From a virus: 64,000 bases of DNA. This document shows, in pieces, positions 3 to 63,710 of this stretch (position 1 is the stretch's first letter; each line of letters opens with the position of its first letter). The stretch covers positions 1 through 64,000 of IMG/VR virus record IMGVR_UViG_3300033145_001841. One strand, 5' to 3'. Made by a program: the position numbers and the translations under genes. Under the pieces are notes generated by a model. That model did not search any database. It had not been told where the DNA came from and saw nothing but the letters and a program-made list of their open reading frames with translations.

Positions 3-431
3 TATGTTGCTAAACAAGCCACAGCAATGAAAGATTTTACATCCGGGAATTCCTCGGCAACCGACCATTGGGGGTCAACCGGGTGCGTGGCGATGATGGA
101 TTTGTTTTCCCCTATGTTTAAGCCCGGCAGCGGTTTCGCTCAACATTTTGGATCGGGCACGAATCAAACTTTGTCTGGTGCCACATCGGGTAATGCCTGG
201 ATATTGTCCGGGCTGGGATTCCCGATGTCAAGCGATGGCGTCGATTCAACGGGCACGTCGCAATTCGGAAAAGATTATTTTTATCAGTATATTCGAAATG
301 AATTATGTTTGCTCTCGTGCGGGTCTTGGGGCGACGGTTCGGCTGCGGGGGTTTGGTATTCGCATTGGTACGACTGTCGGTCGGGTTCGAGCGACTCTGT
401 GGGTTTACGGCTCTGCCTGTACCCGTGGTAG
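3..431 (+). CDS. DGR variable protein, C-terminal part (C-type-lectin-like adhesin; 5-prime end outside window)
   Basis: The reading frame is open from the window edge, so this is the last 142 codons of a longer protein. The final 40 residues (from about LCLLSCGSWGDGS to GLRLCLYPW) have the GSW...GVW...W...GLR pattern of the C-type-lectin fold used by retroelement-diversified proteins such as Mtd of phage BPP-1. This part is encoded by the variable repeat. The gene is followed directly by avd, TR and a reverse transcriptase, so its role as the diversified target is well supported. In phages these are usually receptor-binding tail proteins. The position just before the lysis genes fits a tail tip or fiber, but the N-terminal part is not visible. 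Confidence 0.9.
   Translation, partial: YVAKQATAMKDFTSGNSSATDHWGSTGCVAMMDLFSPMFKPGSGFAQHFGSGTNQTLSGATSGNAWILSGLGFPMSSDGVDSTGTSQFGKDYFYQYIRNELCLLSCGSWGDGSAAGVWYSHWYDCRSGSSDSVGLRLCLYPW
302..419 (+). repeat. DGR variable repeat (VR)
   Basis: This 118-bp stretch aligns without gaps to 880-997. There are 30 mismatches and every one is at a position where the template has A (30 of 40 template adenines changed; no C, G or T changed). Identity starts abruptly at 302 and stops 12 bp before the end of the gene. Substitutions fall mostly in AAC and AAT codons, as expected for adenine-specific mutagenic retrohoming. Confidence 0.97.
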
Positions 432-447
432 TCGGGCGATAGCCCGA
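432..447 (+). other. DGR target-site hairpin downstream of VR
   Basis: A perfect 6-bp stem (TCGGGC / GCCCGA) with the 4-base loop GATA starts one base after the stop codon of the variable protein and 12 bp after VR. Hairpins or cruciforms with 4-nt loops just downstream of VR are known target-recognition elements in phage BPP-1 and other DGRs. Function here is inferred from position and shape. Confidence 0.75.
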
Positions 448-460
448 TCAAGGATTAGAA

Positions 461-862
461 ATGGGACTACACAGTGAAGCGACACTAAATAGTAAGTTCA
501 TGGAATTTGCAAAACTTATGAATATTTATTTAAACCATTTTCCACATCATGAAAAATTTGCATTGGCTAACAAGATAAGGAATACGGCATACAATGTCTA
601 TGACCTTATCACAGAAAGCCAAAAGCGTTATTTCAAGAAAACGACATTGGTGAATTTAGACATTGCTCATGAAAAACTGAGGATGCAACTATTGTTAGCG
701 CACGAATTGGGATATTTTCATTTCAAAGACGGCAAGCAAAGCGATAAAAGTCCTAAAAATTTAGAAAGACATCGTTTTTCGGCAATTAGTCGGCTGAATG
801 ACGAATTGGGGAAAATGATAGGAGGATGGATTAAAAAAGTAAAGCAGGACAATAAATGGTAG
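461..862 (+). CDS. avd: Avd-like accessory protein of the retroelement
   Basis: The 133-aa, helix-rich basic protein lies between VR and TR, the usual place of the accessory variability determinant, which forms a pentamer of four-helix bundles and works with the reverse transcriptase in cDNA synthesis. An AAGGAT box lies about 6 bp before the ATG. The length and the helical pattern with many Lys and Arg fit the bAvd/S23-like family. Family assignment rests on context plus general sequence character rather than one diagnostic motif. Confidence 0.8.
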   Translation: MGLHSEATLNSKFMEFAKLMNIYLNHFPHHEKFALANKIRNTAYNVYDLITESQKRYFKKTTLVNLDIAHEKLRMQLLLAHELGYFHFKDGKQSDKSPKNLERHRFSAISRLNDELGKMIGGWIKKVKQDNKW

Positions 863-879
863 TAAATGGGAAGGCTCTT

Positions 880-997
880 ATTATGTTTGCAATCGTGCAG
901 GAATTGGAACAACAGTTCGAATGCAGGAGTTTGGAATTCGAATTGGAACAACTATCAGTCGAATTCGAACAACAATGTGAATTTACAGCTCTGACTA
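880..997 (+). repeat. DGR template repeat (TR)
   Basis: This is the adenine-rich donor copy of VR, between avd and the reverse transcriptase gene. Read in the VR frame it is dense in AAC, AAT and CAG codons and ends in a stop, so it is a template and not a gene. Its RNA would be copied into mutagenised cDNA. Apparent open frames across it are not expected to be translated. Confidence 0.96.
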
Positions 998-1123
998 CAG
1001 TTCTACCTCAAATTCTTAACAGAAATAGCGGAACTACAGGGAGAGTTTTTCCAGCTTTAAGCGAAATCAATCAGAATCCTCTTTTTGGTAAACGAAAGTT
1101 GAAAACCAGAGGCTTTATTTAAA

Positions 1124-2077
1124 ATGAAACGATATGGCAATTTATTCAATTCTGTATTCAATGAAGAAAATCTATATAATGCCCATTTGGATGCTAGAAA
1201 AGGCAAACGAAAGAGATCTTCTTGCTTTAAATTTGAAAAGAATTTAAGCAAAAATTTGTTTGATTTACATAATGAAATTCATATCGGTAAATATTACCCA
1301 CAACCATATTTTAAATTTATCGTTTATGAACCAAAGAAAAGGATTATTTATGCTCCGGCTTTCCGAGACACTGTGGTCCAACACGCCATTTATAGGGTGG
1401 TTTATGATATTTTCGATAAAACATTTATCAGTAAATCATTTGCTTGTCGCCGAGGCTATGGAACTCACAAGGCAAGTGATTATACCCAATGGGCCTTAAG
1501 ACAACATGAACCAGACGAGTATACGTTAAAGCTCGATATCCGAAAATTCTTTTATTCGATCAACCGAGAGATCCTAAAAAGTCAGGTCGAGCGGAAGATA
1601 AAAGATGAAAGATTGGTAAATGTGATGATGATGTTCACCAAAATGGATGAACCGGACGGTATCCCAATCGGGAATCTTTTAAGCCAGATATATGCGCTGA
1701 TCTATCTAAACCCAATGGACCATTTCATCAAGCGTGTACTTAAAATTAAACACTATGTCCGATATGTGGATGATTTTATTTTGATCGGATTAACCCGCCC
1801 CCAATGCCTTGAATACCGGGCGATGATTATCCAATGGTTGCGTGACAATTTACATCTGCAGCTATCAAAATCAACCATTCAAAAGGTAAAAAAAGGTCTG
1901 AATTTCGTTGGTTATCGAACATGGCGGAGCAAGCGGTTTATCCGAAAATATAGTCTTTATAAATTCCGGCGTGCCGTCAAGGCCGGGAAGCGGGATGTTG
2001 TTGTATCATTGTTCGGCCATGCTAAAAACACTCAGTCAGTGCCATATATGGCCGGAATTCTACGGGGGGAACACTGA
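1124..2077 (+). CDS. DGR reverse transcriptase
   Basis: 317 aa. Group II intron/DGR-type reverse transcriptase. Visible motifs are LDIRKFF (metal-binding Asp about residue 138), IPIGNLLSQ (179-188, the form of motif 4 typical of DGR enzymes where other RTs have QG), and the YVDD active site (214-217). A C-terminal thumb-like basic region follows. It would copy TR RNA with adenine misincorporation for transfer to VR. The stop overlaps the ATG of the next gene. No maturase or endonuclease domain is present, consistent with a DGR and not a mobile intron. Confidence 0.95.
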   Translation: MKRYGNLFNSVFNEENLYNAHLDARKGKRKRSSCFKFEKNLSKNLFDLHNEIHIGKYYPQPYFKFIVYEPKKRIIYAPAFRDTVVQHAIYRVVYDIFDKTFISKSFACRRGYGTHKASDYTQWALRQHEPDEYTLKLDIRKFFYSINREILKSQVERKIKDERLVNVMMMFTKMDEPDGIPIGNLLSQIYALIYLNPMDHFIKRVLKIKHYVRYVDDFILIGLTRPQCLEYRAMIIQWLRDNLHLQLSKSTIQKVKKGLNFVGYRTWRSKRFIRKYSLYKFRRAVKAGKRDVVVSLFGHAKNTQSVPYMAGILRGEH

Positions 2078-2725: not shown

Positions 2726-3024
2726 TTAAATTTAAGCAAAACGTTGTTGTGCATCCGTACGCTATTCGATCTCCGGAGGTGATGCGCATTCTCGATATTG
2801 CGGTGTCCGAGGCGCCGGATGGGTATCACGTAACCGTCACCAGCGGATGCGAGGGGAAGCACTTGCCCGGATCCAGCCATTACCGGGGGAAGGCCTGGGA
2901 TCTTCGGATCCGTGATTTTCCGGGAAACGTGGAAACCTGGGTGGACCGCATCCGCCGCGCCCTGGGAGACCGGTATTTTGTGCTCCTGGAATCGGATCAT
3001 ATTCATATTCAGTGGAACGGATAG
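2722..3024 (+). CDS. M15-family peptidase (endolysin-type D,D-carboxypeptidase)
   Basis: 100 aa from the ATG overlapping the previous stop. It has the compact zinc-peptidase motif set of M15A enzymes: SSHYRGKAWDLR (His and Asp ligands, about 49-60) and the C-terminal HIHIQW (His ligand). These enzymes cut peptide cross-links in peptidoglycan, and phages use them as endolysins. It lacks a cell-wall-binding domain. Position between a membrane protein and a lipoprotein supports a role in host lysis. Confidence 0.88.
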   Translation: MIKFKQNVVVHPYAIRSPEVMRILDIAVSEAPDGYHVTVTSGCEGKHLPGSSHYRGKAWDLRIRDFPGNVETWVDRIRRALGDRYFVLLESDHIHIQWNG

Positions 3025-3623: not shown

Positions 3624-3768
3624 CTCATCCCTCCATAAATCGTTAACATTTAGTTACCACCCGCATTACCGCCTAATAATTTCAACCACTTCCGTCTTAA
3701 CGTGCGGGTTCAAGTACCGCACTGGCCTATTATAAAGATGCCTGCACCCTTTCTTCTCTCATGCACTC

Positions 3769-4033
3769 CGGGGTAGTGTTTGGGGTAGTGACGTTTGACA
3801 ATCCGTGCAAAATATGACAAAATACCCCAAAAAATACCCCACTGTTTTTTGACTTTACGCTATCCATGCGGTTTTTAACGATATCCAGAGCGCCTTTTAG
3901 CCCTGTTACTTGCCTTTCACGCCTGCGACAGGGGTTCGAATCCCCTTGGGGACGCCAAATGATTTTAGGGGGTTAGCCGTTTATTGGTTGGCCCCCTTTT
4001 CATTTCGGGGTAGTGTTTGGGGTAGTGACGTTT
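3769..4033. other. Phage attachment site (attP) with integrase arm-type repeats
   Basis: The centre (about 3911-3957) is the 3-prime half of a tRNA-Glu gene: anticodon loop CTTTCAC, a T-arm with loop TTCGAAT, acceptor strand and encoded CCA. The 5-prime half of the tRNA is absent. Two identical 28-bp direct repeats at 3769-3796 and 4006-4033 flank it, each holding two GGGGTAGTG units, and an inverted version lies at 3821-3843. This is the layout expected of a P-arm / core / P-prime-arm attachment site for the adjacent tyrosine integrase. Because no full tRNA precedes the integrase gene, this is best read as attP and not attL or attR. Confidence 0.85.
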
Positions 4034-5039
4034 CGAAAGATAGATTTTCAACCGCATTTTTCACATCGTCCTGAACATTATAAATGTACCGATCCGTTGT
4101 GGTCGGAGCCGCATGGCCGAGCAGCTTCTGAATGGTCGGGATGGACTTTTTATATTTGTCGGCCAGCAGGGATGCAAACATTCTCCTGATTGCATGAAAG
4201 CCCACCCTACCCTTCTCGATCCCCGCCTTTTTACATAATCCGTGAATGAACCTTCTCCTGGTCGTGTACCCTGCCCCGTAGTGGCTGTGATTTGGCTCCC
4301 GGTTCTGGAAAACGAAGTCTGACATGGGTAATTTGTTTTTCCACTGGTCCTGCAAGCAACTAAACGCCATGTCGTTCATGGGCGCATATCGGTATTTCAT
4401 GGAACCATCCCTTGACTTTCTGCTCCCTAATCGGATTGTGCGCTTCTCAAAATTGATATCGTCCGTCCAGGTCAGCCGAAAGATTTCTGAGCGCCGGGCC
4501 CCTGTTGTCCCCAAAACCACCAAAAGGTTCCGACCGTGCCTAGTTGCAGCCAACATAATGCGAATGAACTCATCCTCAGTGAATACAGCCTGTGGTCCCC
4601 TGTTGGACGGGAGCTTATCAATGCCCACTACCGGGCTAACAGGCAGCTTGTGAAATTTCATAGCGTAATTGAAAAATGCCAGTAGTTCTTTCCTGGCTCG
4701 GTTAAACCGCGACGCGGGCGTGATCATCTTGAGGTAGTCCCACACGTCTTTCGTGGTAATATTCAGGATCGGCGTATCTGGTGGGTATTTACAAAGCAAT
4801 CTTTTCAAGTGCCTCCGCTTTGTTTTGTATGTGCTTTCGATGTACTTGATTTCGGCAAATGACAAATAATCGTTAATGACTTCCAGCAAAGAGCCCGTGT
4901 GGGTCTGCTTGAGATAAGAGCTTTTGGTCTCCCTTTCCCATGCGATTGCCTCTCTTTTTGTACGGAATGATTTTTGCGCGATGCGCTTCTGGCTGACTGT
5001 CACGACTCCGCGCCATCTTCCCCGATCCTTGTAAGGCAT
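3981..5039 (-). CDS. int: Tyrosine integrase
   Basis: 352 aa. An N-terminal AP2-like arm-binding domain (residues 1-50, rich in basic residues) is followed by a SAM-like core-binding domain and a C-terminal catalytic domain with the Arg of GTTGARRSE, the HAIRR box and the final GHAAPTTTDRY with the tyrosine nucleophile. It catalyses integration and excision at the neighbouring tRNA-Glu site. Its last codons overlap one of the arm-site repeats, so that DNA is both coding and, by inference, a binding site. Start is the ATG inside the 3-prime end of the upstream excisionase-like gene. Confidence 0.95.
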   Translation of the reverse strand: MPYKDRGRWRGVVTVSQKRIAQKSFRTKREAIAWERETKSSYLKQTHTGSLLEVINDYLSFAEIKYIESTYKTKRRHLKRLLCKYPPDTPILNITTKDVWDYLKMITPASRFNRARKELLAFFNYAMKFHKLPVSPVVGIDKLPSNRGPQAVFTEDEFIRIMLAATRHGRNLLVVLGTTGARRSEIFRLTWTDDINFEKRTIRLGSRKSRDGSMKYRYAPMNDMAFSCLQDQWKNKLPMSDFVFQNREPNHSHYGAGYTTRRRFIHGLCKKAGIEKGRVGFHAIRRMFASLLADKYKKSIPTIQKLLGHAAPTTTDRYIYNVQDDVKNAVENLSFETSLPQTLPRNEKGANQ

Positions 5040-10734: not shown

Positions 10735-13590
10735 TCACTCATCTATCTGCCACAATGCTTTTAACCTGTCCTGTATTTTTTGTTCAAAATACATCGCAAT
10801 TTCTTTTTGTCTGTTTATCATTTGTTGCTCGTATTCAATCTTTTGTATAATTTGTTCCTGCTCGATTATAGATGGGACAGGTATTTTTAGACTTTTAATA
10901 ACGTTTGCATTGAATTGTGGTTGGCCCGTCCCTGTTGCTAAAGAATTGGCCTGTGTCCAATATTCATCAGCTTGCGAAAAAATCCAAAAAAATTTAGGGA
11001 GAATTGTCTTGTTGAAATTTAAGCGGATTAAATAGGATGCAAAAACAGCCTTTATGTTAGTCTCTATCAATACGCTTTTCCCGTATGTAGCACCAGTTCT
11101 TGCTATAAAAATATCGCCATTTTTCACAAGATACTCATTGATCCTTTCTTGTGAATTGATATATTTACAATCAACATCAGAAAGCATGCATTCATGTGTA
11201 ATATCTGTAATTCGGATAAAACGATAGTCCCCAATTTCTAAACCTGTTGATGTTAAACCATACTTAAGGGTTGCAATATCGGCAAGTTTTGCTGATTCCC
11301 ATTTCGGATTAAAGGGTAAGTATGGCTTGTATCCATCAATAACCAACTTAGCCCCGTCAATGATTTGCTGGTAATTTTCAAGTTCTTTTACGATATCATG
11401 TTGTTTCTTAAGGGATGGCAATGGTATCTCATAAGTAGATATTTTACTTTTGGAAACTTCTTTAAAAGTTGTTCCAGTTGCTAATGTGCCGATGTTAAAA
11501 GCTTCATGCTTTAAAATATAATAGAGATATTCGGGGAGGATTCTTTTTTCATTGCACACAAAGTTTTTAAAACCTTGATTTGTACACGTCTCTTTTTCAG
11601 TAATACATACTTCACCAATGGTAGCCCTGCTCGAAAAAATTACGGCCTTCTTCGGCAATAATTTCGCATTACTATTATTCATTCCTGCCTGAGTTATTTT
11701 TCTTTCGGTTTCATAAAGATATTTTTGTTTTACATCTTTAATTGTCGCCCAATTTATATCCCCATCCCAATAATCTTTATTTTTTATGCTTGGCGTTCCA
11801 CCATTCACAATTTCGGCCACTTCGCCCAATTCGACCAGCCTATATTCACTCTGAATATTATAGAAATTAGATCGAGTAACTAAATTGTAATCATCGTTGG
11901 AAATGTCAGAAATATGAACGCCTTGAAAACCAATGGTATAAAGCAATTCTGAATCTTGTTTAGAGAGAGGTCTTTCGTTTAGAGCTGATGCATTGATTTT
12001 ATCTATATCACTTTCTTCGTTAATTTTTCTCCGATTATTATCCAATGTAAATCCGTCATTCTCAACCTTGAAACACCAATATGTCTGAGTTGATGTCTGT
12101 TCAATGTCAGTTAAATATAAAATATCTGTCTTAACTCCAGCATAAGGGAGGAAACATCCTTGGGGCAAAGATACGACACTATGAAGATTAGCATGTTCCA
12201 ACAAAAATCGTCTCGCAGGCTTTAATTCTTTCCTAAACAAAAAGCCTTCAGGGACAATAACCGCCATTCTTCCACCTGCTTTTAAACTTTTAAAACAATG
12301 AAGAACACACACTGTGTCGCCACTGTTTTTTCCAAGCCCGTCATAATATTTGTCCGTAACATCATTGATGAGTTTTCCGTCTTTGCCTTTCTTGGTGATT
12401 CTTTGAGAAAAAGGGATATTTGTCAAAACAATATCATATTGACCATCAACTGGATTTTCCAAGCTATCTATCTGCGAAACGCCTGAATGACCATCTCCAT
12501 GCAAAATCATATTCATTTTAGCTATGCGTGAAGTTGTTGTAATCTCACGTCCCCAAATTGATTGTGATCTTAGGAACTCTACTGCCTCTTCATTATGTTC
12601 TAAAGATTCTCGGATATGGTTAAATACCCCCGTCAAAAAGCCTCCCGTCCCACAAAATGGATCGTATGTTTTTTCCCCGAATTGTGGGTTGACCAAGTTT
12701 ACCATTGCTTTGATAATATGGCGGGGGGTAAAGTATTCCCCTAGATCGTTCTGTGTTGACGTGGTTTTTTCAAGGAAATATTCAAATGCCCCTCCTTTTA
12801 TATCTTCGTCAACCGGCGTTAGGTGGAGAGGGTCAAGACGTTCAATAATATCATCGAGGGTGGAAGGTTTTCTAATGAGCAGTGTGGAAAACACGTCCCC
12901 TCCATATTGCTTAGCGATACTTTTTAAGACGATTTTATTGATATAATCAATTCTCGTTTTGCTCTGTTGTTTTTTTATGTCATTCCATATCGAACTTTTA
13001 TTGTGCTCGCTGAGTAATTTGAGAAACAGAATGTTGGCAAATTCGCTAAATCTCTCAATTCCAGCCCTCAGCCCTTCCCCTCTCAAGACATCATTCAAAT
13101 CTCCGAACAAAGAAATCATGTCCTTTCGTGAACGAATCACCTCTTTTGGGATGGTATAGAGATCGTTCGTTTTTTCTGTCAAATATCCGAGGGCCTCTTT
13201 AACTCGAAGAAGTTCCTTGACTTCTTGCCCATTCAGAAGAAGCGTTTTTGAGTTCTGAACATAACGAGTTTTGCAGAACGTTCCATTAATCGCAAAAACA
13301 AGAGGAGCCTTGAGTTTTTTTGCATATTTTGTTCCCTGATCTAAGGCTTTGTCTAAATCTGCCCCTGGTTTTTTTGCTTCAATTACTCCAAGCGGGACAT
13401 ATGAATCATCAACATGGCCTTTATACAAAAGAGTATAGTCAGGACGTTTTCTCCCTAATTTCTTTGAATACCCTTGAGGCAGGGAAGACTCAAAATAAAC
13501 ATTCCGTAGCGGATCATCAGGGTTGAGAATCCATCCTTTGTTTTCTAATGTCCGATCTATTCTATATCTTACATCAGCTTCTAAGGCCAT
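10735..13590 (-). CDS. Single-chain restriction-methylation-specificity (R-M-S) fusion enzyme
   Basis: 951 aa. Residues 1-150 form an HsdR-N-type nuclease domain with a PD-(D/E)XK site (Asp51 ... Glu71-Ala-Lys73). About 160-560 is an HsdM-type adenine methyltransferase with motif I DPFCGTGG (310-317) and motif IV NIPF (391-394). About 590-951 is an HsdS-type specificity module with two target-recognition halves, each ending in a long coiled helix. There is no helicase motor, so it should act like a type IIG enzyme and not translocate as type I does. AT-rich compared with neighbours. It is the largest gene of the cassette array. It could protect phage DNA or exclude competitors. Confidence 0.88.
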   Translation of the reverse strand: MALEADVRYRIDRTLENKGWILNPDDPLRNVYFESSLPQGYSKKLGRKRPDYTLLYKGHVDDSYVPLGVIEAKKPGADLDKALDQGTKYAKKLKAPLVFAINGTFCKTRYVQNSKTLLLNGQEVKELLRVKEALGYLTEKTNDLYTIPKEVIRSRKDMISLFGDLNDVLRGEGLRAGIERFSEFANILFLKLLSEHNKSSIWNDIKKQQSKTRIDYINKIVLKSIAKQYGGDVFSTLLIRKPSTLDDIIERLDPLHLTPVDEDIKGGAFEYFLEKTTSTQNDLGEYFTPRHIIKAMVNLVNPQFGEKTYDPFCGTGGFLTGVFNHIRESLEHNEEAVEFLRSQSIWGREITTTSRIAKMNMILHGDGHSGVSQIDSLENPVDGQYDIVLTNIPFSQRITKKGKDGKLINDVTDKYYDGLGKNSGDTVCVLHCFKSLKAGGRMAVIVPEGFLFRKELKPARRFLLEHANLHSVVSLPQGCFLPYAGVKTDILYLTDIEQTSTQTYWCFKVENDGFTLDNNRRKINEESDIDKINASALNERPLSKQDSELLYTIGFQGVHISDISNDDYNLVTRSNFYNIQSEYRLVELGEVAEIVNGGTPSIKNKDYWDGDINWATIKDVKQKYLYETERKITQAGMNNSNAKLLPKKAVIFSSRATIGEVCITEKETCTNQGFKNFVCNEKRILPEYLYYILKHEAFNIGTLATGTTFKEVSKSKISTYEIPLPSLKKQHDIVKELENYQQIIDGAKLVIDGYKPYLPFNPKWESAKLADIATLKYGLTSTGLEIGDYRFIRITDITHECMLSDVDCKYINSQERINEYLVKNGDIFIARTGATYGKSVLIETNIKAVFASYLIRLNFNKTILPKFFWIFSQADEYWTQANSLATGTGQPQFNANVIKSLKIPVPSIIEQEQIIQKIEYEQQMINRQKEIAMYFEQKIQDRLKALWQIDE

Positions 13591-28868: not shown

Positions 28869-29752
28869 AAGCCCAACAATATAAAATTGATAATGGTGTT
28901 GAATTCCAGAAATGTAATGTGTGTGAAAAATGGAAATTTATTAGTGACTTTCATAGAGATAAATCAAAGAAACGAGGGTTTAGATATAAATGCAAAGTTT
29001 GTACTAAAAAATATGATGTTGATTACTTAAAAAGAAATCGTGAAAAGCGATCCAAGCAACATAGAGAATGGAGAATAAATAATAGAGATCGGCATAACGA
29101 ATTGAATTCCAGATGGCGCAATAATAATCTTGAAAAAGCAAGAGCAAGTGGTCGAAAGTGCTATCATAAACATAAAGATGAACGACGATTGTGGTCAATC
29201 GAATATTACATAAAAAACAAAAATAATATTAGACCAAAAAAGAAAAAATGGAAAATTGAAAATTTTGGAAAAGTAAAAAAAACGAGTGCCATTTATTATC
29301 AAAAAAACAAGGAAAGACATAAAAAATGGATGAAGGAGTATTATAAAAACAATAAAGACAAATACAGGGAAAGTGCTCGAAAATATTATAATACACCAAA
29401 AGGGAGAACATCCTTAAACATTTCTCGTAGAATAGCATTTACCCTAAAAGGCAAAAAGGGTGGAAGACACTGGGAAGACATTGTTGGATATTCAGTAGAA
29501 CAACTCATTTTCAGGCTGAAGAAAACAATGCCAAAGGGATATACATGGGATGATTATTTAAATGGAGAACTACATATTGATCATAAGATTCCTATTGCGG
29601 TTTTTAACTATGAAACGCCAGACGATTTAGATTTTAAAAAATGTTGGGCTCTTAAAAATTTACAACTTCTTCCTGCGGGTAAAAATTTGTCTAAAGGGGC
29701 TAAAATTGATAGGCCTTTCCAGCCATCATTGTTATTGAGGGCTCAATTTTGA
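28865..29752 (+). CDS. HNH homing endonuclease with long basic repeats
   Basis: 295 aa, strongly AT-rich and Lys-rich. N-terminal FQKCNVC...YKCKVC zinc motif; long stretch of REWRINNRDRH-type repeats seen in many homing endonucleases; C-terminal HIDHKIPIAVFNYETPDDLDFKKCWALKNLQLLP with HNH residues. It overlaps both neighbours by 4 bp, as an inserted free-standing gene would. Confidence 0.88.
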   Translation: MKAQQYKIDNGVEFQKCNVCEKWKFISDFHRDKSKKRGFRYKCKVCTKKYDVDYLKRNREKRSKQHREWRINNRDRHNELNSRWRNNNLEKARASGRKCYHKHKDERRLWSIEYYIKNKNNIRPKKKKWKIENFGKVKKTSAIYYQKNKERHKKWMKEYYKNNKDKYRESARKYYNTPKGRTSLNISRRIAFTLKGKKGGRHWEDIVGYSVEQLIFRLKKTMPKGYTWDDYLNGELHIDHKIPIAVFNYETPDDLDFKKCWALKNLQLLPAGKNLSKGAKIDRPFQPSLLLRAQF

Positions 29753-32727
29753 AAAAAGATTTAGATCAAATAAAAACAGAAATATTGTCGCGTTTAAATA
29801 TTCAGAGCGAAATGGAACTGTTAGGTATTAAATTTGTAGGCAATCCCAATTCATCGGGTTGGATAGTTTGCCGCTCACCATACGCACCTGACAAACACCC
29901 CTCCTGTGGGGTTAATATTTCATCCGGATCATATCGTGGATATCTTTGCGCGTTCAATGCCAGCGGCTCACGCGGAAAACCCTATGCTGCTTTTTCTTTC
30001 TGGGACATCGCTGCGAATTTCCTCCCGGGCGCCGGCGGGGACTTCGGGCACGTTCTCAAGCATTATGCAAAAAAGACCGGGGTACGATTGAAATCTTACT
30101 CACCTCCCAAGGCTAAATATATTGAATTTTCTCAAAAAAATGTCGTGAAAGAGGTCAAAAAATACCTGAATGAAAAACGTGGCCTTACAGATGAATCAAT
30201 CAAGAAATACCACATTGGATGGGACCCAAAACGAGAAAGAAACACATTCCCTGTTTATGATGAGAATGGTCAGCTTGTCAATATCCGATACCACAATTCC
30301 AAAAAAAAACCGAAAACATTTAACCACTCCGGATACGGCGGCGCCAGGATATGGGGGTTAGATCGGCTGGTAAAGGCTTCCCCGGGCTTGACCATCGCAA
30401 TAACTGAAGGTGAATGGGATTCAATGATGGTTGAGCAGGAAACCGGGTTAATTTCTGTTTCCCCTACCAATGGAAAAGAAGCCTTTAAACCGGAGTGGGC
30501 AGCGTTATTCAAGGGTTATCATGTGGTGCTTGTATGGGATTGCGACAAAGAAGGACGCGAATCAGTGAAACGAACGGTGCTCCCGGTTTTCAAGAAGCAT
30601 GTTCAAGACGGAAGCGTATTGTCGATAAAGGTAATTTGGCTGTTCAATGATCCAAAAGATAAAACTCAAAAGGATTTTACAGATTTCATTGTGCGTGCTG
30701 GCGGTACTGGGGAAAGCCTCTTAAAGATAATCGAAGATACGTCTCCATATGAATATATCACGCCAAAGCATGTCCTACCCGATCCAATTTCCCTGTCATC
30801 ATTTGCAGAGATAGACAACGATGAATATGTGGGTCGTCGCGTGACCGTTCCCCTTTATATATATGGCGAGAATTCCGAAGCGTATCATGCGCCCACTGAA
30901 GTCAAAGTGACGCATTGCCTGAAAATGGAAAAGAGCCAGTGTTACCAGAGGGACGATTGGGAATATCAATGCACTGATCCTGTACCTATCTCTACGGGGA
31001 ACCGAATTTTATTATCAGCGGTTTCCAGCACAGACGCACAGCTCAAAGGCGCATTGCGTGATTTCGTTTGCGATAAAGGAACAAGGCCGAACGTTGAAGT
31101 TGAAGATAAAAATCGGGTTACGATTCGGGAGAATTTTGCGCATCAGGTTTTAAGTGAAAGCATTGCAACGGACGCCACGGAATTGGTGGAAAAGCCGGTT
31201 TATACCATTGGTGGTGACCTGCTACCCATTGGCCAGTACCAGGCCACAGGGTTTATCCATTCACACCCGCGAAACCAGCGGCCCACCATGCTAATTGATA
31301 GTTTTGAAAAGCAAGCTGAAGATTGGCAAGCGTTTGATTTAGATAAATCCAGGCACATGTTGGAACATCTACAAGAACTGAGCCCTGTAAAAATTATTGA
31401 AAGTTTGGTGTCAAATGTGACCCGGATTTATGAACGGGAGGAAATCCACCTGGGAGTGTTGCTTACAATTCTTTCTCCGTTATGGTTGAACATCCCGGGT
31501 GAAGGGAAAAAAAGAGGTTGGATTTCTTCGATTGTCATCGGTGATACGGGCACTGGAAAAACCACTATCTCAGAAAACATTTTTCGTTATGCCGGAATCG
31601 GTGCCCGGTTATCCGGCATGACCAGCACGCGGACAGGGATCACATATGCCCTTGAATTTAACGAACGGCGTGGATGGCGGATCAAAGCCGGAATGCTACT
31701 CAAGATGAGCAAGCAGGCTCTAATTATTGACGAAGGGCAGGATATTGCCGAGTTCGACCTGAAGACCATGGCAGAGGCGCTGGACACTGGTCAGCTTCAA
31801 ATTGCCCGGGTGGAATCACGTAAGTTCGAATCAATGACCCGTTGTTTTTTCAGTTGCAATCCGGTTTCAAATATACCTGGGCGCCAAGCCAATCAACGGA
31901 CAATGGATTCCTTCCTGTACCCGGCAAGATCCCTAAACGATATTTTTCCACAAATGATGTTGAGGCGAATTGATTTTTGCATGTTTGCGGCCAGTGACGA
32001 CATCAAAGGGATGAAAAAAATATATTCAAAGTTCGATAATAAATCTCCAAAGCCTACGCCTGCATTCACCTCTGCAGAATTCAAAGCGCTTGTGTATTAT
32101 GCGTGGACGCTCTCCTCGGACCGAATACGGATATCCGACGATATTGCCAGAAAAATCAGAGCGGAGTCATTGCGCATGACGGATAAATTTGGTCAATGTG
32201 CAGACCTGCCGATTGTTTATCCTCAAGATTTTAGGCACACGCTTGCCAGGCTTGTTGTGGCTTATGCTGTTTTGGATTTAGCATCAGACGACGACTTTCA
32301 AACCATTACACCAAATGAGACACATATTGCAACTATATGCCGCCTGTTGGATGCCATTTATTCTGCTGATAATTGCCGCTTGGATGCATACTCAAATCAG
32401 TATGCAAAGACCCATCAATTTTTAAATCCGGAAGAGGATATTCAGAAATTAAAAGATCATCTTCTTGGGTCTGAATCTCGCACATACCGCGTGAAGAAAA
32501 TCCTTGAAGAATTGGTTGAACTGGATCCGAATGGAAGACAAAAATTACAGCAAAGATACCTTGCGGATCTGTTCGATGTTCACCGTGAGACCATCCTTGA
32601 GGACCTGAAACCTTTCGTAACCATGAATTTAATCAAATCTGTCAGGGGATATGTACCGACAACTCGTTTAATTCGGTTGTGGTCGTATTTATTGAAAAAC
32701 AAGAAAAATTTTTGGGAAGAGGTGTAA
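29749..32727 (+). CDS. Primase-helicase fusion with MCM-like AAA+ domain
   Basis: 992 aa. Residues 35-75 contain a CHC2-type zinc finger (CRSPYAPDKHPSC...YLC). About 210-270 is a TOPRIM domain (ITEGEWDS; VWDCDKEG). The middle part is less conserved. About 590-760 is an AAA+ core like MCM helicases: Walker A GDTGTGKTT, Walker B ALIIDEGQD, sensor FSCNP and Arg finger RRID. The C-terminus has a winged-helix domain. It should synthesise primers and unwind DNA at the candidate origin just downstream. GTP/ATP details and ring form are inferred from family. Confidence 0.87.
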   Translation: MKKDLDQIKTEILSRLNIQSEMELLGIKFVGNPNSSGWIVCRSPYAPDKHPSCGVNISSGSYRGYLCAFNASGSRGKPYAAFSFWDIAANFLPGAGGDFGHVLKHYAKKTGVRLKSYSPPKAKYIEFSQKNVVKEVKKYLNEKRGLTDESIKKYHIGWDPKRERNTFPVYDENGQLVNIRYHNSKKKPKTFNHSGYGGARIWGLDRLVKASPGLTIAITEGEWDSMMVEQETGLISVSPTNGKEAFKPEWAALFKGYHVVLVWDCDKEGRESVKRTVLPVFKKHVQDGSVLSIKVIWLFNDPKDKTQKDFTDFIVRAGGTGESLLKIIEDTSPYEYITPKHVLPDPISLSSFAEIDNDEYVGRRVTVPLYIYGENSEAYHAPTEVKVTHCLKMEKSQCYQRDDWEYQCTDPVPISTGNRILLSAVSSTDAQLKGALRDFVCDKGTRPNVEVEDKNRVTIRENFAHQVLSESIATDATELVEKPVYTIGGDLLPIGQYQATGFIHSHPRNQRPTMLIDSFEKQAEDWQAFDLDKSRHMLEHLQELSPVKIIESLVSNVTRIYEREEIHLGVLLTILSPLWLNIPGEGKKRGWISSIVIGDTGTGKTTISENIFRYAGIGARLSGMTSTRTGITYALEFNERRGWRIKAGMLLKMSKQALIIDEGQDIAEFDLKTMAEALDTGQLQIARVESRKFESMTRCFFSCNPVSNIPGRQANQRTMDSFLYPARSLNDIFPQMMLRRIDFCMFAASDDIKGMKKIYSKFDNKSPKPTPAFTSAEFKALVYYAWTLSSDRIRISDDIARKIRAESLRMTDKFGQCADLPIVYPQDFRHTLARLVVAYAVLDLASDDDFQTITPNETHIATICRLLDAIYSADNCRLDAYSNQYAKTHQFLNPEEDIQKLKDHLLGSESRTYRVKKILEELVELDPNGRQKLQQRYLADLFDVHRETILEDLKPFVTMNLIKSVRGYVPTTRLIRLWSYLLKNKKNFWEEV

Positions 32728-36884: not shown

Positions 36885-37080
36885 GCCGTGGCATAATCCA
36901 CGGCCCGGATTAGAAAGCCGGAATACTCGTAAGGTGCGCAAGCGCCTAAACCATAGAGCGCTTTTTTTATGCTCTGTGAACCCTTGGCGGGTTGTGCGCG
37001 GGAGCCTTCGGGCTCGCCGGTTTCCTTACGGGCCGGTCTTTCTAACCGTGTGCATCCCGCCTTTTTTTATTAGAAAGAAG
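36885..37080 (+). ncRNA. C4-like antisense RNA leader of the antirepressor gene
   Basis: About 195 nt of GC-rich, hairpin-forming sequence between a strong promoter and the AntA-type gene, in the place of C4 antisense RNA of P1, P7 and N15 phages. It includes GCGCAAGCGCCTAAACC, a GAGCC-TTCG-GGCTC hairpin and CCTTACG (37023-37029), which is complementary to CGTAAGG at the Shine-Dalgarno of the antirepressor (37107-37113). Antisense control of ant translation is the inferred role. Confidence 0.55.
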
Positions 37081-37123: not shown

Positions 37124-37960
37124 ATGAACAAACCCACCAGCCCGTCCACCGATCTTATCCCCATCAACTCGAATATGGGAGGCAAGCGCACGGTCAATGC
37201 GCGAGATTTGCATGAATTCCTGGAATCCAAGCAAGACTTTTCCACATGGATCAAGAAGCGAGTCAAACAATACGGCTTTCTCGAAAATCTTGACTTTCTC
37301 ATTATCCCAAGTGCTCCACAAAAAAATGGAGCGCTAAAATCAACAACTTACGGACAGTCCCGAATCGATTACCACCTAACCATGGACATGGCCAAAGAGC
37401 TGTCCATGGTCGAGCGAACAGAGAAAGGACGTCAGGCCAGACGGTATTTCATCCAATGTGAGAAAATCGCCCGTGGTCAGGCCCAGCCCCTTGCCGCTCC
37501 AACCCCGGCACAGATCCCCGCCAAAATCGAAACCCTCACCCCGGTCCAGTGGACCGAAGTCAAAAAACTGGTCTTAGGAAAAGCTCAGCGAAATGTAGGC
37601 GATAAAAAACCGACCAAAAACGATTACATCAAAATCTACCGGTCCATCAAGGAAGAATTTCAGGTTGCCAAAAGCTCAGACGTGCCACAGACACGGTTCA
37701 ACGAGCTGCGGGCCTTTCTCGGAGACGCATGGAGCGTAGTGCCCCTTGAGGATGAGGACATCTCAAACGCCTACCTGTACGTGCTGAAACAGGACGCCGA
37801 GCATGCTGTCGGATATATAATGGAGCGTATGAACAGCATCATGACCGAAATGCTGAATATTTCAAATGCGGTTGGCGTGGTGTTCCCGGAAGAGCTGAAG
37901 GCGCAAGGCAACCGTGGCTTCGTGCCCGAACGCGTGATGACGGAAGGGGGTGTGTTATGA
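37124..37960 (+). CDS. AntA/AntB-type antirepressor
   Basis: 278 aa. KRTVNARDLHEFLESKQDFSTWIKKRVKQYGFLENLDFLI (about 20-60) is the AntA domain signature, followed by GQSRIDYHLTMDMAKELSMVERTEKGRQARRYFIQCEK. The C-terminal half is a separate helical domain of unknown type. Antirepressors bind the phage repressor to trigger lytic growth. AAGGAGG upstream lies in the region complementary to the C4-like leader. Confidence 0.9.
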   Translation: MNKPTSPSTDLIPINSNMGGKRTVNARDLHEFLESKQDFSTWIKKRVKQYGFLENLDFLIIPSAPQKNGALKSTTYGQSRIDYHLTMDMAKELSMVERTEKGRQARRYFIQCEKIARGQAQPLAAPTPAQIPAKIETLTPVQWTEVKKLVLGKAQRNVGDKKPTKNDYIKIYRSIKEEFQVAKSSDVPQTRFNELRAFLGDAWSVVPLEDEDISNAYLYVLKQDAEHAVGYIMERMNSIMTEMLNISNAVGVVFPEELKAQGNRGFVPERVMTEGGVL

Positions 37961-39190: not shown

Positions 39191-40057
39191 TCATTTCCAC
39201 CCCATCCCAACTCTAATTCTTTTACGCAAAACATCAACAGGACAATGCAAATATACATTCCGGATGGTATCTGCTGAATCCCCAAGCAGGACCGCCACGT
39301 CTTCTATTTTTACCCCTCCTATAAAGAATAAATAAGAAGCCGTATAATGTCTGAAAGTGTGCGCGCCTCTTCCGTCCCTCCCGTTCTTAAACCCAAGGTC
39401 TTTCAGCATCCCGTTGACAATTTCCTGGACACGGCCGACGTCCGGGAATGTTTTACTCAGCCATGCTTTTTTCCCGACCTCGGATTGTCGTGCCACCATC
39501 AGCTTGTGGGTCTCCTTCGAAAAGAACGCCGGTCGCGGCTCAGTTTTCGAGTCAGAAAGAAACAGCGTGCCGGCCGCCATGTCAATATCCGTCCCCCGCA
39601 AAACAGCCAGCTCCCTTGCCCGGCAACCGGTTTCGATGAGAAGCGCGGTTATCAACCTGTCCCGCGTTGGGTTTGCGCTCCTGGGGAAGAAATAGGCCCG
39701 GCACTGCGCGATCTCGTCTTGAGACAGCCAACGCCTTGCATGTTTCAACTTGAAGGCCTTCTTGCCCTTGTTGCTGATCGAGAAGGTGTATTGCGATGGA
39801 CGCCCCGCCCACTTTAGGAATATTTTAATGCCGGTGAATTTCTGGTAAATGGTTTGGTCGGAAATTTTCCGCGCCTTGAGCGCCTTGGCCAGGGCGGGCA
39901 TATGCGATTCGATGTGTCTGACTTCCGTGATGCCGCTGGACGCTTCACAGAATTTGCGAAGGTCATTCAGGCTGATGGTGTATCCTTCGCGGGTGGTGGG
40001 GGCAAGGCTCTGCACCTTTTGGCTGTTCAGGTATTCATTGATCTTCTCCTTTATCAT
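39191..40057 (-). CDS. Second tyrosine recombinase
   Basis: 288 aa from MIKEKINEYL with AAGGAGG upstream. N-terminal SAM-like core-binding domain, then IETGCRARELAVL (catalytic Arg), HTFRHYTASYL (HxxR) and LLGDSADTIRNVYLH (Tyr). Asp replaces the usual His in the LLGH box. XerC/D-like size. It differs from int at attP. Could resolve dimers or be the integrase of an inserted element covering 38.6-47 kb. Confidence 0.88.
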   Translation of the reverse strand: MIKEKINEYLNSQKVQSLAPTTREGYTISLNDLRKFCEASSGITEVRHIESHMPALAKALKARKISDQTIYQKFTGIKIFLKWAGRPSQYTFSISNKGKKAFKLKHARRWLSQDEIAQCRAYFFPRSANPTRDRLITALLIETGCRARELAVLRGTDIDMAAGTLFLSDSKTEPRPAFFSKETHKLMVARQSEVGKKAWLSKTFPDVGRVQEIVNGMLKDLGFKNGRDGRGAHTFRHYTASYLFFIGGVKIEDVAVLLGDSADTIRNVYLHCPVDVLRKRIRVGMGWK

Positions 40058-40076
40058 TTGATCCTCCTTCAGGCGT

Positions 40077-40427
40077 TCACGACAGCCTTTTATCTTTCCC
40101 CCTGTCGCTCCAATCGCCTTCCCTGATGAACCTGGCAATGTTTTTCACCTTCGCTTGGCATGTCAGGCACAGGTGCGTATCTTCGTTGAACCCGAATTCA
40201 TTCCCGTCGCATTTGGAACAGAAGTAACATTTACTCTGGTTCGCTTGTTTGTAAAGGCTGTCAATCGGCTCGAAAAAACCTCCATGGTCCCTTCCCGCAA
40301 GGCCGTCTTCAACGTCAGACGCGACCAGATTTAGTATGAAATGCAGGATTACTTTCTGCTGTTCCGGTTGTAGTGAGTCCATTACCCGCTTTCCTGCTCT
40401 CATTACTGTTTCGGTTGCTTTTTTCAT
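40077..40427 (-). CDS. Hypothetical zinc-ribbon protein
   Basis: 116 aa from MKKATETVMRAGKRV; AAAGGAGA upstream. Helical start, then SKCYFCSKCDGNEFGFNEDTHLCLTCQAK, a four-Cys zinc ribbon. Role unknown. Confidence 0.7.
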   Translation of the reverse strand: MKKATETVMRAGKRVMDSLQPEQQKVILHFILNLVASDVEDGLAGRDHGGFFEPIDSLYKQANQSKCYFCSKCDGNEFGFNEDTHLCLTCQAKVKNIARFIREGDWSDRGKDKRLS

Positions 40428-57623: not shown

Positions 57624-58850
57624 ATGCCTATAGGAATCAATGAAATTCCGGCACTTAGACTCAAAGTGCTGAATAAACTGGTTACGAAATACATGTCTCC
57701 GCCCAATCTGATTCTCAAGAAGATGTTCAAGGCTGTGGAATACGAGTCCGACATCATCGAATGGGAATCTCAGATCGGAAGCAGGGGATTGACCCCGTTC
57801 GCCGCAGAAGATGCGGAGAGCCCGTCCGCCGCCATACCCGGGGTCGGCGAGAACTCAGCGCACGCTGCGTTCTGGAAAGAACGGACCTTTTTTGGAGCGT
57901 CCTTTTTGAACAACATCCGTAAGTCCGGTACCGACCGAATGTACCAGAAGGCGAAAAGGACCCTCGGGAACCAGGCCCGGAATCTCAGCAACAGGAGTTT
58001 CCGGAGAGAGGAATGGATGCTTGCACAAATGTTGTGCAACGACGGGTTCACGTATAAAGACAAAAACGGGGTTTACATTACCCTGGACTACGGAACCCCT
58101 GATGCCAACAAGGTATCCCTGGAAGTTGATTACAAGTGGGATGCTGGAACCAAGCGGAACATCGTTGAGAATATCTTCGATGGGAAGCTTTTGGTCAGCA
58201 ACGCGAACGCCGGTGTTTTGACGGATTCAATTTGCACCACTGAAGTCCTCAAGCTCATGATATTTGACGACACGATCCAGACGCTTTTGCAGAAGTCGGC
58301 TTACGGGCAGGGTGACTTGTTCGCCAACCCGACCAATGTCATCGGCAGCCTGATCGGGATCACAAATATGCACCTGTACGATGAAGCATACCAGATCCGC
58401 GCATGGTTGACTTCCGCATTGTCGGCCGGTGCCGGCCCCCACACCGTATCCATTGATACGACGGTGGACTTTGAGGTGGACGGGACCCTGACCCTCCTGG
58501 ATACATCCGCCAAAACAACCGAAACCTTAACCATCACGGCTGTGAACACTAATGCCGGGACCCTTACGGCGACCGGGGCCCTATCGTCTTCTTACAAGGC
58601 GACCGAGGACTATGCCTACATGACCAGGAAGTTCATCCCAACGGATAAGTTCACTATGTGGGCGGGAACTGTTGACGGTGAACCCATTGCGGAATTCATG
58701 AAGGCGCCGCACGAACTGGCAAGGAAATGGGGCCAGCAGATTGACCGCTGGGAGAAGAAAGACCCCGACGGGATCTTTTTGCGCGTTGAAGATAAGGGCC
58801 TTCCGGTTCTTTATCATGAGGACGCTGTTTATCAACTTACAGTAAAATGA
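57624..58850 (+). CDS. Major capsid protein
   Basis: 408 aa. Order protease-decoration-capsid and the pattern KVLNKLVTKYMSPPNLILKKMFK ... GRKWGQQ-like C-terminus (HELARKWGQQIDRWEKKDPDGIFLRVEDKGLPVLYHED) fit the gpE/HK97-fold capsid family. A Thr/Ala-rich insertion near residues 275-325 (TVSIDTTVDFEVDGTLTLLD) may be a surface domain. AAAGGAGG upstream. Confidence 0.88.
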   Translation: MPIGINEIPALRLKVLNKLVTKYMSPPNLILKKMFKAVEYESDIIEWESQIGSRGLTPFAAEDAESPSAAIPGVGENSAHAAFWKERTFFGASFLNNIRKSGTDRMYQKAKRTLGNQARNLSNRSFRREEWMLAQMLCNDGFTYKDKNGVYITLDYGTPDANKVSLEVDYKWDAGTKRNIVENIFDGKLLVSNANAGVLTDSICTTEVLKLMIFDDTIQTLLQKSAYGQGDLFANPTNVIGSLIGITNMHLYDEAYQIRAWLTSALSAGAGPHTVSIDTTVDFEVDGTLTLLDTSAKTTETLTITAVNTNAGTLTATGALSSSYKATEDYAYMTRKFIPTDKFTMWAGTVDGEPIAEFMKAPHELARKWGQQIDRWEKKDPDGIFLRVEDKGLPVLYHEDAVYQLTVK

Positions 58851-61065: not shown

Positions 61066-61692
61066 ATGGGTGTTGGCGCAGACATAAAAGAAGCTCTCGA
61101 AGAAGTGGGCGTCTCCTATACCATTGTCCGGGATGCCGGTAATGTTTCTGGAGAATATGGTCTACTGGAGTTCTCTTCGCAGGTCACAAAACCGCTGACA
61201 ATCGAGGCTTTCAGGCGCGGAATGACGCCTTATGACACAGCGCTTATCGCCGGGGATGTGGTTCGTTTTGACGTAGTTGACGAAATGTATCTCGCAACGA
61301 ATATGCTCCCTGAATTGTTTGTGAACGATATCGTCCATTACGACACTGTTTTTTATAAGTGCAACGTGGCCAGCGGTGAGTTGTCCAGGCCCAGCGGTGA
61401 AACGTGGGATGATCCTTTGGACCAGTACCATAAAGAAACCGGGTGGGAAGTGATTAACGACAACTGCAATGCCATGCAGGTGGCCGCGCTTTACGGAAAC
61501 GACCTTGAGACGGATAAAGAACTCGCGTTGTTAGGGCTGCAAGAGAACGAAGTCTTAATCCCACATTCTATTGGAGCGCAGGTATTGGACCGTTGGCAGC
61601 CCGCAAGCGGAGAATATTACCAGATAAGCGTAATCGAACCCAGGCGTTATCCGAACATAGATGTGCTGATCATCGAAGAAGACAGAAGATAA
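61066..61692 (+). CDS. Hypothetical virion assembly protein
   Basis: 208 aa. Beta-rich with DVVDEMYLATNMLPELFVNDIVHYDTVFYKCNV and a C-terminal IDVLIIEEDRR. Probably a head completion or neck protein. Starts one base after the preceding stop. Confidence 0.65.
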   Translation: MGVGADIKEALEEVGVSYTIVRDAGNVSGEYGLLEFSSQVTKPLTIEAFRRGMTPYDTALIAGDVVRFDVVDEMYLATNMLPELFVNDIVHYDTVFYKCNVASGELSRPSGETWDDPLDQYHKETGWEVINDNCNAMQVAALYGNDLETDKELALLGLQENEVLIPHSIGAQVLDRWQPASGEYYQISVIEPRRYPNIDVLIIEEDRR

Positions 61693-61715
61693 AACAATCT
61701 TCCTGGAGGAAGAAA

Positions 61716-63710
61716 ATGAAACGAGTGCTTTTTGTGGGTGAAAACCCCCTCATGACAACCGGAAATGCAAACATGCTGGCCGCGATACTCAAGCGGCTGG
61801 ATACGGACAAGTACGCCCCATCATGCCTGGTATCGGGGAATGTAGACCCGAGCCCGATCCTTTTCGATCCTACGCCTTACACCATCGCAAACGCTTCAAC
61901 GCCTGAAGACCATTGGGGGAACAAACGACTTGTCTCTCTCATCCAAGGTACTGACTTCGACTACCTGTGCATGGTTGGGGTTGACTTCTGGCGGTACCTG
62001 CCTGCGTGGGGTGCGATTAAGCAGCTCCGGGACGCGAAGAAATTCAAGTGGATATCCATTTTTCCGTATGACCTGTGGAAAATGCAGCCATCGTGGGTGA
62101 AATACCTGAACGCACTGGATTACCCCTGCGTTTATTCTCAGTACGGATACGACGCCCTGAAACCATACGTCCCGAATATCAGATATTACCGACCTGAATT
62201 GAACGGATGGGAGATGTTTACGCCGGCACAAGATAAAATAGCTGCCCGGAAAGAGGTGTTCCCAAACGTGCCGGACGATAAGACCATTTTCGGCTTTATT
62301 GGTGTCAACCAGATCCGCAAATCACCTGAGATCCTGATAAAAGCGTTTTTCGAGGCCAAAAAAGAGAACCCGGATATTGTCCTGTACCTGCATTGTGAAA
62401 TGGGCCATCTGTACAACTTGAAGCAGATTGCCCAGGACTGCGGCGCCAAAGACGGCGACGTGATCTCAAAGCAGCAAGGCATGTTGTATTCGAGAGACAA
62501 GATGCCGACTATCTACAACGCTTTGGACTGCGTAATCAATTGCAGCATGCAGGAGGGCCTTTCGTGGACGCCTCTTGAGGCCATGGCGTGTGGGGTCCCC
62601 GTGATTGCATCCGACACCACGGCGCAAACTGAGCTTGTCAAAGGTGTGGGCGGTCTGGTCCCCTGCAATAATCTTTCTTTCGTGCCGATGTCCGGTGAAA
62701 ACGGGCCGGTCACGATTGAATCACGAGCTTGCCACGTATCTGATATCACCCGGGCTATCTTAGATGTGGCCGTGAACGATAATCTTCGAGAAGCCATGTC
62801 AATAAAAGGGTTGAAACGGGCGAAGGAGTGGTTCGCCGGCACGAACGACATCAACGCATTATTGGCAGAAGCCGGTAAAAGAGTTAAGCCGCCAAAGCAA
62901 ATCCCTGCGGTGTTGTTCGCTCAGCACTCTTCCGCGGGCGATGTGCTTATGACGACCCAGTGCTTCAAGGGAATCAAGGAGCGTCACCCGGGCATGCCGT
63001 TGGTCTATATGACGCAGAAGGTCTTTTCCGGCATTGTTTTCGGGAACCCGTACATTGACGAAATCATAGAGTGGGATGAGCGCCATCTGAAATCATACGA
63101 TGTGGTCTACAACCCGCACGGGGAACACATCCTTCACGGTGGTTTCAACAACCTGGATGTGACGCTTCACAGTATGTACCCGTATTTCACGAACGTTGTA
63201 CCGGACGAGATGTTCATTGATCCGGTGAAACCAAAGATTGAGTTGTCAAACGAATACATCGTCGCCCACACAACGGGTGGCAGTAAAAAATATCGATCCT
63301 ACCCGCACATGGATATGGTCTTAAAGGACATCGGCCTGCCTGTGGTCCAACTCGGAGGCCCCGGCGATTTGAGGTGCAAATCTGACCTGGATCTATGCGG
63401 CAAGCTCACATGGCAAGAATCTGCTTGGGTGATGAAGAACGCCAAAGCCGCCGTTGTGGTTGACAGCTTCTTGTCTCACCTTGCTGGTGCTGTTGGAACT
63501 GATGCCGTGGTCTTGTACGGGCCAGCTCCGCCGCGCGTTGTTCAACCAAAAGCTCAAGGGTGTAAAATCGTGAATTTGAAACCGGACATGCTAAAAGTGT
63601 GTAAAAATATGACCCATTGTTGGGGGCAGCAACAACAGTGTAATTCGCCTTGCATCAACTCAATAAATCCTCTTGACGTCCGGAAGGCTTTGGAGGAACT
63701 GTTATGCTAA
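61716..63710 (+). CDS. GT4-GT9 glycosyltransferase fusion
   Basis: 664 aa from the ATG with GGAGGA upstream. N-terminal half: GT4-type (GT-B fold) with SMQEGLSWTPLEAMACGVPVI near 275-300. C-terminal half (about 390-664): GT9/heptosyltransferase-like, with HSSAGDVLMTTQCFKGIKERHP, PHMDMVLKDIGLPVVQLGGPGDL and VVDSFLSHLAGAVGTDAVVLYG. A fused pair of sugar transferases in a head-tail operon is unusual. It may glycosylate virion proteins or the host surface. Confidence 0.85.
   Translation: MKRVLFVGENPLMTTGNANMLAAILKRLDTDKYAPSCLVSGNVDPSPILFDPTPYTIANASTPEDHWGNKRLVSLIQGTDFDYLCMVGVDFWRYLPAWGAIKQLRDAKKFKWISIFPYDLWKMQPSWVKYLNALDYPCVYSQYGYDALKPYVPNIRYYRPELNGWEMFTPAQDKIAARKEVFPNVPDDKTIFGFIGVNQIRKSPEILIKAFFEAKKENPDIVLYLHCEMGHLYNLKQIAQDCGAKDGDVISKQQGMLYSRDKMPTIYNALDCVINCSMQEGLSWTPLEAMACGVPVIASDTTAQTELVKGVGGLVPCNNLSFVPMSGENGPVTIESRACHVSDITRAILDVAVNDNLREAMSIKGLKRAKEWFAGTNDINALLAEAGKRVKPPKQIPAVLFAQHSSAGDVLMTTQCFKGIKERHPGMPLVYMTQKVFSGIVFGNPYIDEIIEWDERHLKSYDVVYNPHGEHILHGGFNNLDVTLHSMYPYFTNVVPDEMFIDPVKPKIELSNEYIVAHTTGGSKKYRSYPHMDMVLKDIGLPVVQLGGPGDLRCKSDLDLCGKLTWQESAWVMKNAKAAVVVDSFLSHLAGAVGTDAVVLYGPAPPRVVQPKAQGCKIVNLKPDMLKVCKNMTHCWGQQQQCNSPCINSINPLDVRKALEELLC

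What the first reader, a model, noticed from the sequence alone, without database searches (positions are those of the whole stretch)
3..2077. Complete DGR with adenine-only substitutions
TR and VR differ at 30 of 118 positions and all 30 are template adenines (10 adenines unchanged, no change at C, G or T). The arrangement target-VR-hairpin-avd-TR-RT matches the BPP-1 type. The high fraction of changed adenines means the VR has been rewritten repeatedly, so the system has been active. It diversifies a phage protein next to the lysis genes, probably a receptor-binding protein.
Basis: seen in the sequence. Interest (0 to 1): 0.75.

Follow-up and report, generated by a model that had tools for sequence, protein, structure and literature searches.

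The report
Ordinary phage diversity-generating retroelement

Summary
VR 302-419 and TR 880-997 align without gaps over 118 nt; all 30 differences fall on the 40 template adenines and none on the other 78 positions. The order target/VR - GRNA hairpin - avd - TR - spacer RNA - RT is that of BPP-1. Every defining DGR part tested is present.

Three corrections. (1) The target gene is cut by the contig end, so only its last 142 codons are seen. (2) The last differences (402, 403, 409, 416, 419) lie in the IMH zone. At 416, TR has A and VR has C in this element and in all 71 relatives scored, so it is a fixed IMH/IMH* mark, not mutagenesis. The mutable body is 25 of 34 adenines. (3) Homing copies and replaces the VR, so a high changed fraction does not show repeated rewriting. 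It shows at least one recent round plus a high error rate or selection.

A relative's full-length target models confidently as the DGR lectin fold (TaqVP, Mtd). Sister pairs in the clade share a TR while their VRs differ almost only at adenines, so the lineage has been active. No sister of this phage was found. New member of a known kind; interest low.

The parts
3..431 (+). 3' part of the target gene (142 codons seen; 5' part beyond the contig start): C-terminal part of a C-type-lectin-fold variable protein
   Evidence: Open reading frame running off the contig; 63% identical to residues 521-661 of a 662-aa frame in L089 and 49-58% to other close relatives' targets; homologue L009 (52% identical here) models as the DGR CLec fold, TaqVP Z 32.6, Mtd 13.6
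302..419 (+). variable repeat (VR); mutable body 302 to about 401, IMH zone about 402-418
   Evidence: 118-nt ungapped match to TR, 30 mismatches all at TR adenines
416..416 (+). fixed IMH mark: C in VR opposite A in TR (994); TR/VR homology ends 3 nt later
   Evidence: TR A / VR C in 71 of 71 relatives scored
432..447 (+). target-site hairpin TCGGGC-GATA-GCCCGA (GRNA loop), 12 bp after VR
   Evidence: Sequence; single-strand DNA fold -7.4 kcal/mol, z -3.66; loop motif YGRTAR within 60 nt in 62 of 72 elements against 9.5 in shuffles
461..862 (+). avd, accessory variability determinant
   Evidence: PF22296 bAvd E 8e-17, above cut-off; phrog_3206 'Avd protein of DGR' E 2e-20; NF033474 DivGenRetAVD E 7e-18, below its cut-off
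880..997 (+). template repeat (TR); body 880 to about 979, IMH* about 980-996
   Evidence: 13 in-frame AAC/AAT codons
982..1119 (+). IMH* end plus spacer (Sp) of the template RNA between TR and RT
   Evidence: Covariance model built from 28 relatives without this sequence matches full length, 97.8 bits, E 3e-23
1124..2077 (+). DGR reverse transcriptase, 317 aa, IGNLLSQ at 182 and YVDD at 214
   Evidence: RVT_1 E 3e-17; phrog_1423 E 6e-101; best solved relative 8ub7, E 1e-48; motif positions

Best explanation
A phage diversity-generating retroelement of the BPP-1 arrangement. A transcript through avd, TR and the spacer folds and is reverse-transcribed by the RT-Avd complex, which misreads template adenines; the cDNA replaces the VR at the 3' end of the target gene, guided by the IMH and the GRNA hairpin. 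The result is variation at up to 20 codons of the binding face of a C-type-lectin-fold phage protein, most likely the receptor-binding tip of the tail. Shown here: the parts, their conservation, adenine-only differences, and activity in sister pairs of the clade. Inferred: the mechanism (from BPP-1), present activity of this copy, and the receptor-binding role.
For: Adenine-only TR/VR differences, 30 of 30. RT closest in the PDB to 8ub7, which I know to be the BPP-1 DGR reverse transcriptase. Avd. GRNA hairpin 12 bp after VR, as in phage DGRs (PMC3240598). Spacer RNA found by a model built without this sequence, 97.8 bits, within the 66-106 bits of ten held-out relatives. Same gene order in BPP-1. 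Target homologue models at pLDDT 91.6 and matches DGR variable proteins TaqVP (Z 32.6), Mtd (13.6) and TvpA (13.2). Two full-length relatives' targets carry weak N-terminal Mtd_N matches, E 1.7e-5 and 0.013, both below the curated cut-off. Sister pairs share a TR while their VRs differ at adenines: 11 of 11, 16 of 17, 17 of 18.
Against: No sister of this very phage was found, so present activity of this copy is not shown. The target's N-terminus is off the contig, so its place in the virion is inferred from relatives. The direct model of the window's own fragment was poor (pLDDT 39.7). The template has four adenines in the IMH zone where 60 of 72 elements have none, which could affect homing.
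Confidence: 0.93

Rival explanations
1. A recently dead DGR: VR was rewritten in the past, but this copy no longer homes, for example because adenines in the IMH zone or changes in the spacer (GCGGA for GTGGA, GGTAAA for GGTAGG) spoil it.
For: TR has four adenines at -14 to -7 before the fixed site, the most of 72 elements; spacer departs from conserved bases at a few sites.
Against: RT, avd and target frames are open with the catalytic YVDD kept; no non-adenine change in 78 sites; spacer scores as well as relatives.
Confidence: 0.1
2. The diversified protein is not a receptor-binding protein but another surface or lysogeny-conversion protein with a lectin fold.
For: Its N-terminus is not in the record; family annotations outside the lectin part are poor.
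Against: Targets of relatives match phage tail families in PHROGs and viral tail-fibre models; some carry weak Mtd_N matches; ORFs upstream of the target in L089 weakly match tail families.
Confidence: 0.15
3. A simple gene-fragment duplication that diverged by ordinary mutation.
For: None beyond the existence of the repeat.
Against: 30 of 30 differences on template adenines (P 9e-20); complete DGR gene set and conserved RNA.
Confidence: 0.005

Closest known systems
Bordetella phage BPP-1 DGR (mtd-avd-TR-brt), NC_005357
   Same: Gene order; adenine-only VR changes (19 of 25 in the deposited record); GC-rich hairpin with GRNA loop after VR; Avd; RT best PDB hit; CLec target fold
   Different: IMH mark is reversed at its first mismatch (VR A / TR C in BPP-1; VR C / TR A here); spacer RNA not recognised by this clade's model at E 0.1; target is closer in fold to TaqVP (Z 32.6) than to Mtd (Z 13.6)
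Pseudomonas phage Bise DGR (OR683401)
   Same: Closest annotated phage RT (60% identity); same order, TR/VR 116 nt with 9 adenine-only differences, same GACT/GCCT end; same spacer RNA family (94.6 bits)
   Different: A phage with a contractile tail and other genes; different target (376-aa frame)
DGR in a Deltaproteobacteria MAG (L089, JAJFTS010000224)
   Same: RT 65%, target C-terminus 63% identical, same order and IMH mark
   Different: Different genomic context; target has an inserted E1_FCCH-like domain
Thermus aquaticus DGR variable protein TaqVP (5vf4)
   Same: Nearest solved fold to the target family, Z 32.6 over 297 residues
   Different: 19% identity over the aligned residues; different host group

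Membership tests
Diversity-generating retroelement (DGR) | TR/VR pair whose differences fall on template adenines | tested here: met
   30 of 30 differences at A, 0 of 78 elsewhere
Diversity-generating retroelement (DGR) | DGR-lineage reverse transcriptase with the GxxxSQ and YxDD motifs | tested here: met
   IGNLLSQ and YVDD; best PDB match 8ub7, E 1e-48, ahead of group II intron RTs at 4e-17 and weaker. No tree was built
Diversity-generating retroelement (DGR) | Accessory protein Avd (or HRDC) | tested here: met
   PF22296 above cut-off, phrog_3206
Diversity-generating retroelement (DGR) | IMH at the VR 3' end, nearly A-free and differing from IMH* beyond it | tested here: met
   Fixed A/C mark, homology ends at +3; the 14-nt zone has 12 TR adenines in all over 71 relatives, but 4 in this element alone
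Diversity-generating retroelement (DGR) | Hairpin/cruciform after VR, GC-rich stem of 7-10 bp, GRNA loop, 4-34 bp from VR (PMC3240598) | tested here: met
   6 Watson-Crick pairs plus a closing G-T pair, loop GATA, 12 bp from VR
Diversity-generating retroelement (DGR) | Structured spacer RNA between TR and RT | tested here: met
   97.8 bits with a model built without it; 10 of 16 modelled pairs show changes on both sides among relatives
Diversity-generating retroelement (DGR) | VR in the 3' end of a lectin-fold (or Ig-fold) target gene | tested here: met
   Model of homologue L009 against TaqVP, Mtd, TvpA; not on the window's own fragment (one search gave a poor model)
Diversity-generating retroelement (DGR) | Mutagenic homing activity | not testable with these tools
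   Indirect only: sister pairs in relatives
BPP-1-type arrangement | Order target(VR)-avd-TR-RT on one strand | tested here: met
Group II intron / retron / DRT reverse transcriptases | Match above the curated cut-off of those families | tested here: not met
   All far below cut-off in NCBIfam

The most novel reading that the evidence does not exclude
In this phage the mutable zone has spread into the normally adenine-free IMH (TR adenines at -14, -13, -9 and -7 before the fixed mark, where 60 of 72 elements have none), so homing here would start closer to the mark than in relatives and vary the otherwise constant last strand of the lectin fold.
Probability: 0.1. Interest if true: 0.4.

Novelty: new member of a known kind. 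Interest (0 to 1): 0.22.

Why it matters
It adds a well-preserved member with an unusually adenine-rich template (40 adenines in 118 nt, about 1e17 possible protein variants) in a phage whose capsid protein has no match in the phage collection searched. The comparison gives two usable points: a clade-wide fixed A/C mark at the TR/VR 3' end that bounds information transfer without an experiment, and a spacer-RNA covariance model that finds the template RNA of this clade and has no match in Rfam.

Tried and rejected
Protein-only search of viral contigs with the RT found no close relative; an exact TR 20-mer found none; DNA search of the phage collection found only a 65% match to phage Bise; so no sister of this phage with the same TR was available. 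Single-sequence folding of the spacer is not better than shuffles (z 0.41), so the RNA claim rests on the comparative model only. Rfam has no family matching the DGR RNA. My first automatic hairpin scan picked other stems in many relatives and was replaced by a motif count. BPP-1's spacer is not found by the clade model at E 0.1, which does not show it is unrelated.

Full report
Observation. A permissive scan (identity, or any base opposite a template adenine) over all offsets finds one pair: VR 302-419 and TR 880-997, 118 nt, 30 differences, all at template adenines, 0 of 78 elsewhere. The 30 differences are A to G 19, C 6, T 5. Placing 30 mismatches at random on 118 positions would put all on the 40 adenines with probability 9e-20. 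No second VR exists in the 64,239-base record. The window is bases 1-64000 of a linear virus record, so the target gene is cut at its 5' side; only 142 codons are visible.

Anatomy. Target 3' end (3-431) with VR; a hairpin TCGGGC-GATA-GCCCGA at 432-447; avd 461-862 (bAvd); TR; a 126-nt spacer; RT 1124-2077 with IGNLLSQ and YVDD. The best solved relative of the RT is 8ub7, which from my own knowledge is the BPP-1 DGR reverse transcriptase. BPP-1 read from its record has the same order. The hairpin fits the published rule for phage DGRs (GC-rich stem, loop GRNA, 4-34 bp from VR; PMC3240598).

Relatives. A viral-contig scan with an RT alignment gave 80 loci, a bacterial-genome scan 80 more; the close ones (RT about 50-70% identical) come from viral contigs and from Pseudomonadota, Desulfobacterota/Geobacter-like and Campylobacterota genomes. 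Where a VR/TR pair could be read, TR lies downstream of VR in nearly all.

Where mutagenesis ends. Aligning 71 relatives by the 3' end of homology shows a fixed feature: TR has GACT and VR has GCCT, the A/C difference being present and always C in 71 of 71, with homology ending 3 nt later. The detection looked for this pattern, so the count is of elements where it was found; pairs without it were the four distant phages (L005-L008) and one mis-scored locus (L044), which on rescanning shows TCGCCT/TCGACT. A mutagenised adenine would show G, C, T and A; this site does not, so it is not rewritten. In this element it is position 416. In the 14 nt before it, relatives have only 12 template adenines in 71 elements; 6 differ, all to G, against 50% G in the body; with the three G changes here (402, 403, 409) the excess of G has P 0.002. 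These are better read as fixed IMH/IMH* differences or selected constant residues (the VGxR strand) than as mutagenesis. That the IMH encodes the non-varying last strand is known for Mtd, TvpA and AvpA (PMC5006420). The mutable body therefore has 34 adenines, 25 changed (G 15, C 5, T 5).

What the changed fraction means. 25 of 34 (74%) is above the clade body mean of 54%; against a rate of 52% P is 0.009, against 51% (BPP-1 in vitro rate quoted in PMC12875486) P is 0.007, and against 31% (in cells, same paper) 3e-7. Because homing replaces VR with a fresh copy of an unchanged TR (PMC3240598), rounds do not add up. A high fraction points to a more error-prone RT or to selection, not to many rounds. 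That no non-adenine site has changed says the last round was recent relative to drift.

RNA. The stretch from TR end to RT start is conserved in 28 relatives; the consensus fold has 16 pairs, 10 with changes on both sides. A covariance model from them, without this sequence, finds the window at 982-1119 full length with 97.8 bits, E 3e-23, and nothing else convincing in 64 kb; ten held-out relatives score 66-106 (L023, L036 and others are near kin of model sequences). Rfam has no such family.

Target. The fragment is 63% identical to the C-terminus of the target in L089 and 49-58% to other close ones. The fragment alone did not fold well. The full-length homologue L009, with 48 sequences, gives pLDDT 91.6; its best solved match is the DGR variable protein TaqVP (Z 32.6, 297 residues, 2.8 A), then Mtd (13.6) and TvpA (13.2), with formylglycine-generating-enzyme folds below; many of the viral models matched are named tail collar/fibre proteins. 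Mtd_N is weakly matched at the N-terminus of two relatives' targets. A receptor-binding tip is the best inference; it is not shown.

Activity. Sister pairs with the same or nearly the same TR differ in VR at 11 sites of which 11 are shared TR adenines (L016/L017), 17 of which 16 (L094/L115), 18 of which 17 (L098/L114), and, with a more diverged TR, 20 of which 15 (L091/L092); two further pairs have identical VRs. The lineage is thus active; for this phage the test could not be made.

Context. The cassette (avd 35%, TR 38%, RT 38% G+C) is poorer in G+C than the record (47%) and the downstream genes (51%), as for an acquired module. Downstream lie small ORFs in the position of lysis genes, unmatched by any library; the 97-aa one (2731-3024) carries SxHxxGxAxD ... 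HIH by eye, as in M15-type peptidases. Then comes the 3' end of a tRNA-Glu-like sequence (3929-3957; near matches in two other genomes lie in tRNA-Glu genes) beside an integrase, with no full tRNA in the window: an attP, so the record is probably the free or excised form of a temperate phage.

Verdict. A real, well-preserved DGR; new member of a known kind; interest low.

Noticed in passing
36980-37067 (+) and 37124-37960 (+): C4 antisense RNA (Rfam RF01695, 62.5 bits) directly upstream of an AntA/AntB-type antirepressor gene: P1-like c4/ant control of lysogeny.
   Followed up: partly
3929-3957 and 3764-3796 / 4001-4033: 3' end of a tRNA-Glu-like sequence next to the integrase (3981-5039, -) with no complete tRNA gene, i.e. 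an attP; a 33-nt direct repeat overlaps the integrase 3' end and is repeated 237 nt away.
   Followed up: partly
10735-13590 (-): 951-aa fusion with N6_Mtase and two Methylase_S stretches and a weak HSDR_N stretch (below cut-off): a type I modification/specificity fusion carried by the phage.
   Followed up: partly
61593-63710 (+): Two-domain glycosyltransferase (GT group 1 plus heptosyltransferase family 9) inside the structural gene region.
   Followed up: no
29749-32727 (+): 992-aa primase-helicase with an MCM-type P-loop domain, unusual for a bacterial phage.
   Followed up: no
39191-40138 (-): A second tyrosine recombinase, far from the attP-side integrase.
   Followed up: no
57624-58850 (+): Major capsid protein E family (PF03864) with no tblastn match in 50,697 phage records.
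   Followed up: no
L096 and L116 (same Psychrobacter contig), L117: One bacterial genome holds three DGRs of this clade; two on the same contig have identical TR and VR over the 113 nt compared.
   Followed up: no
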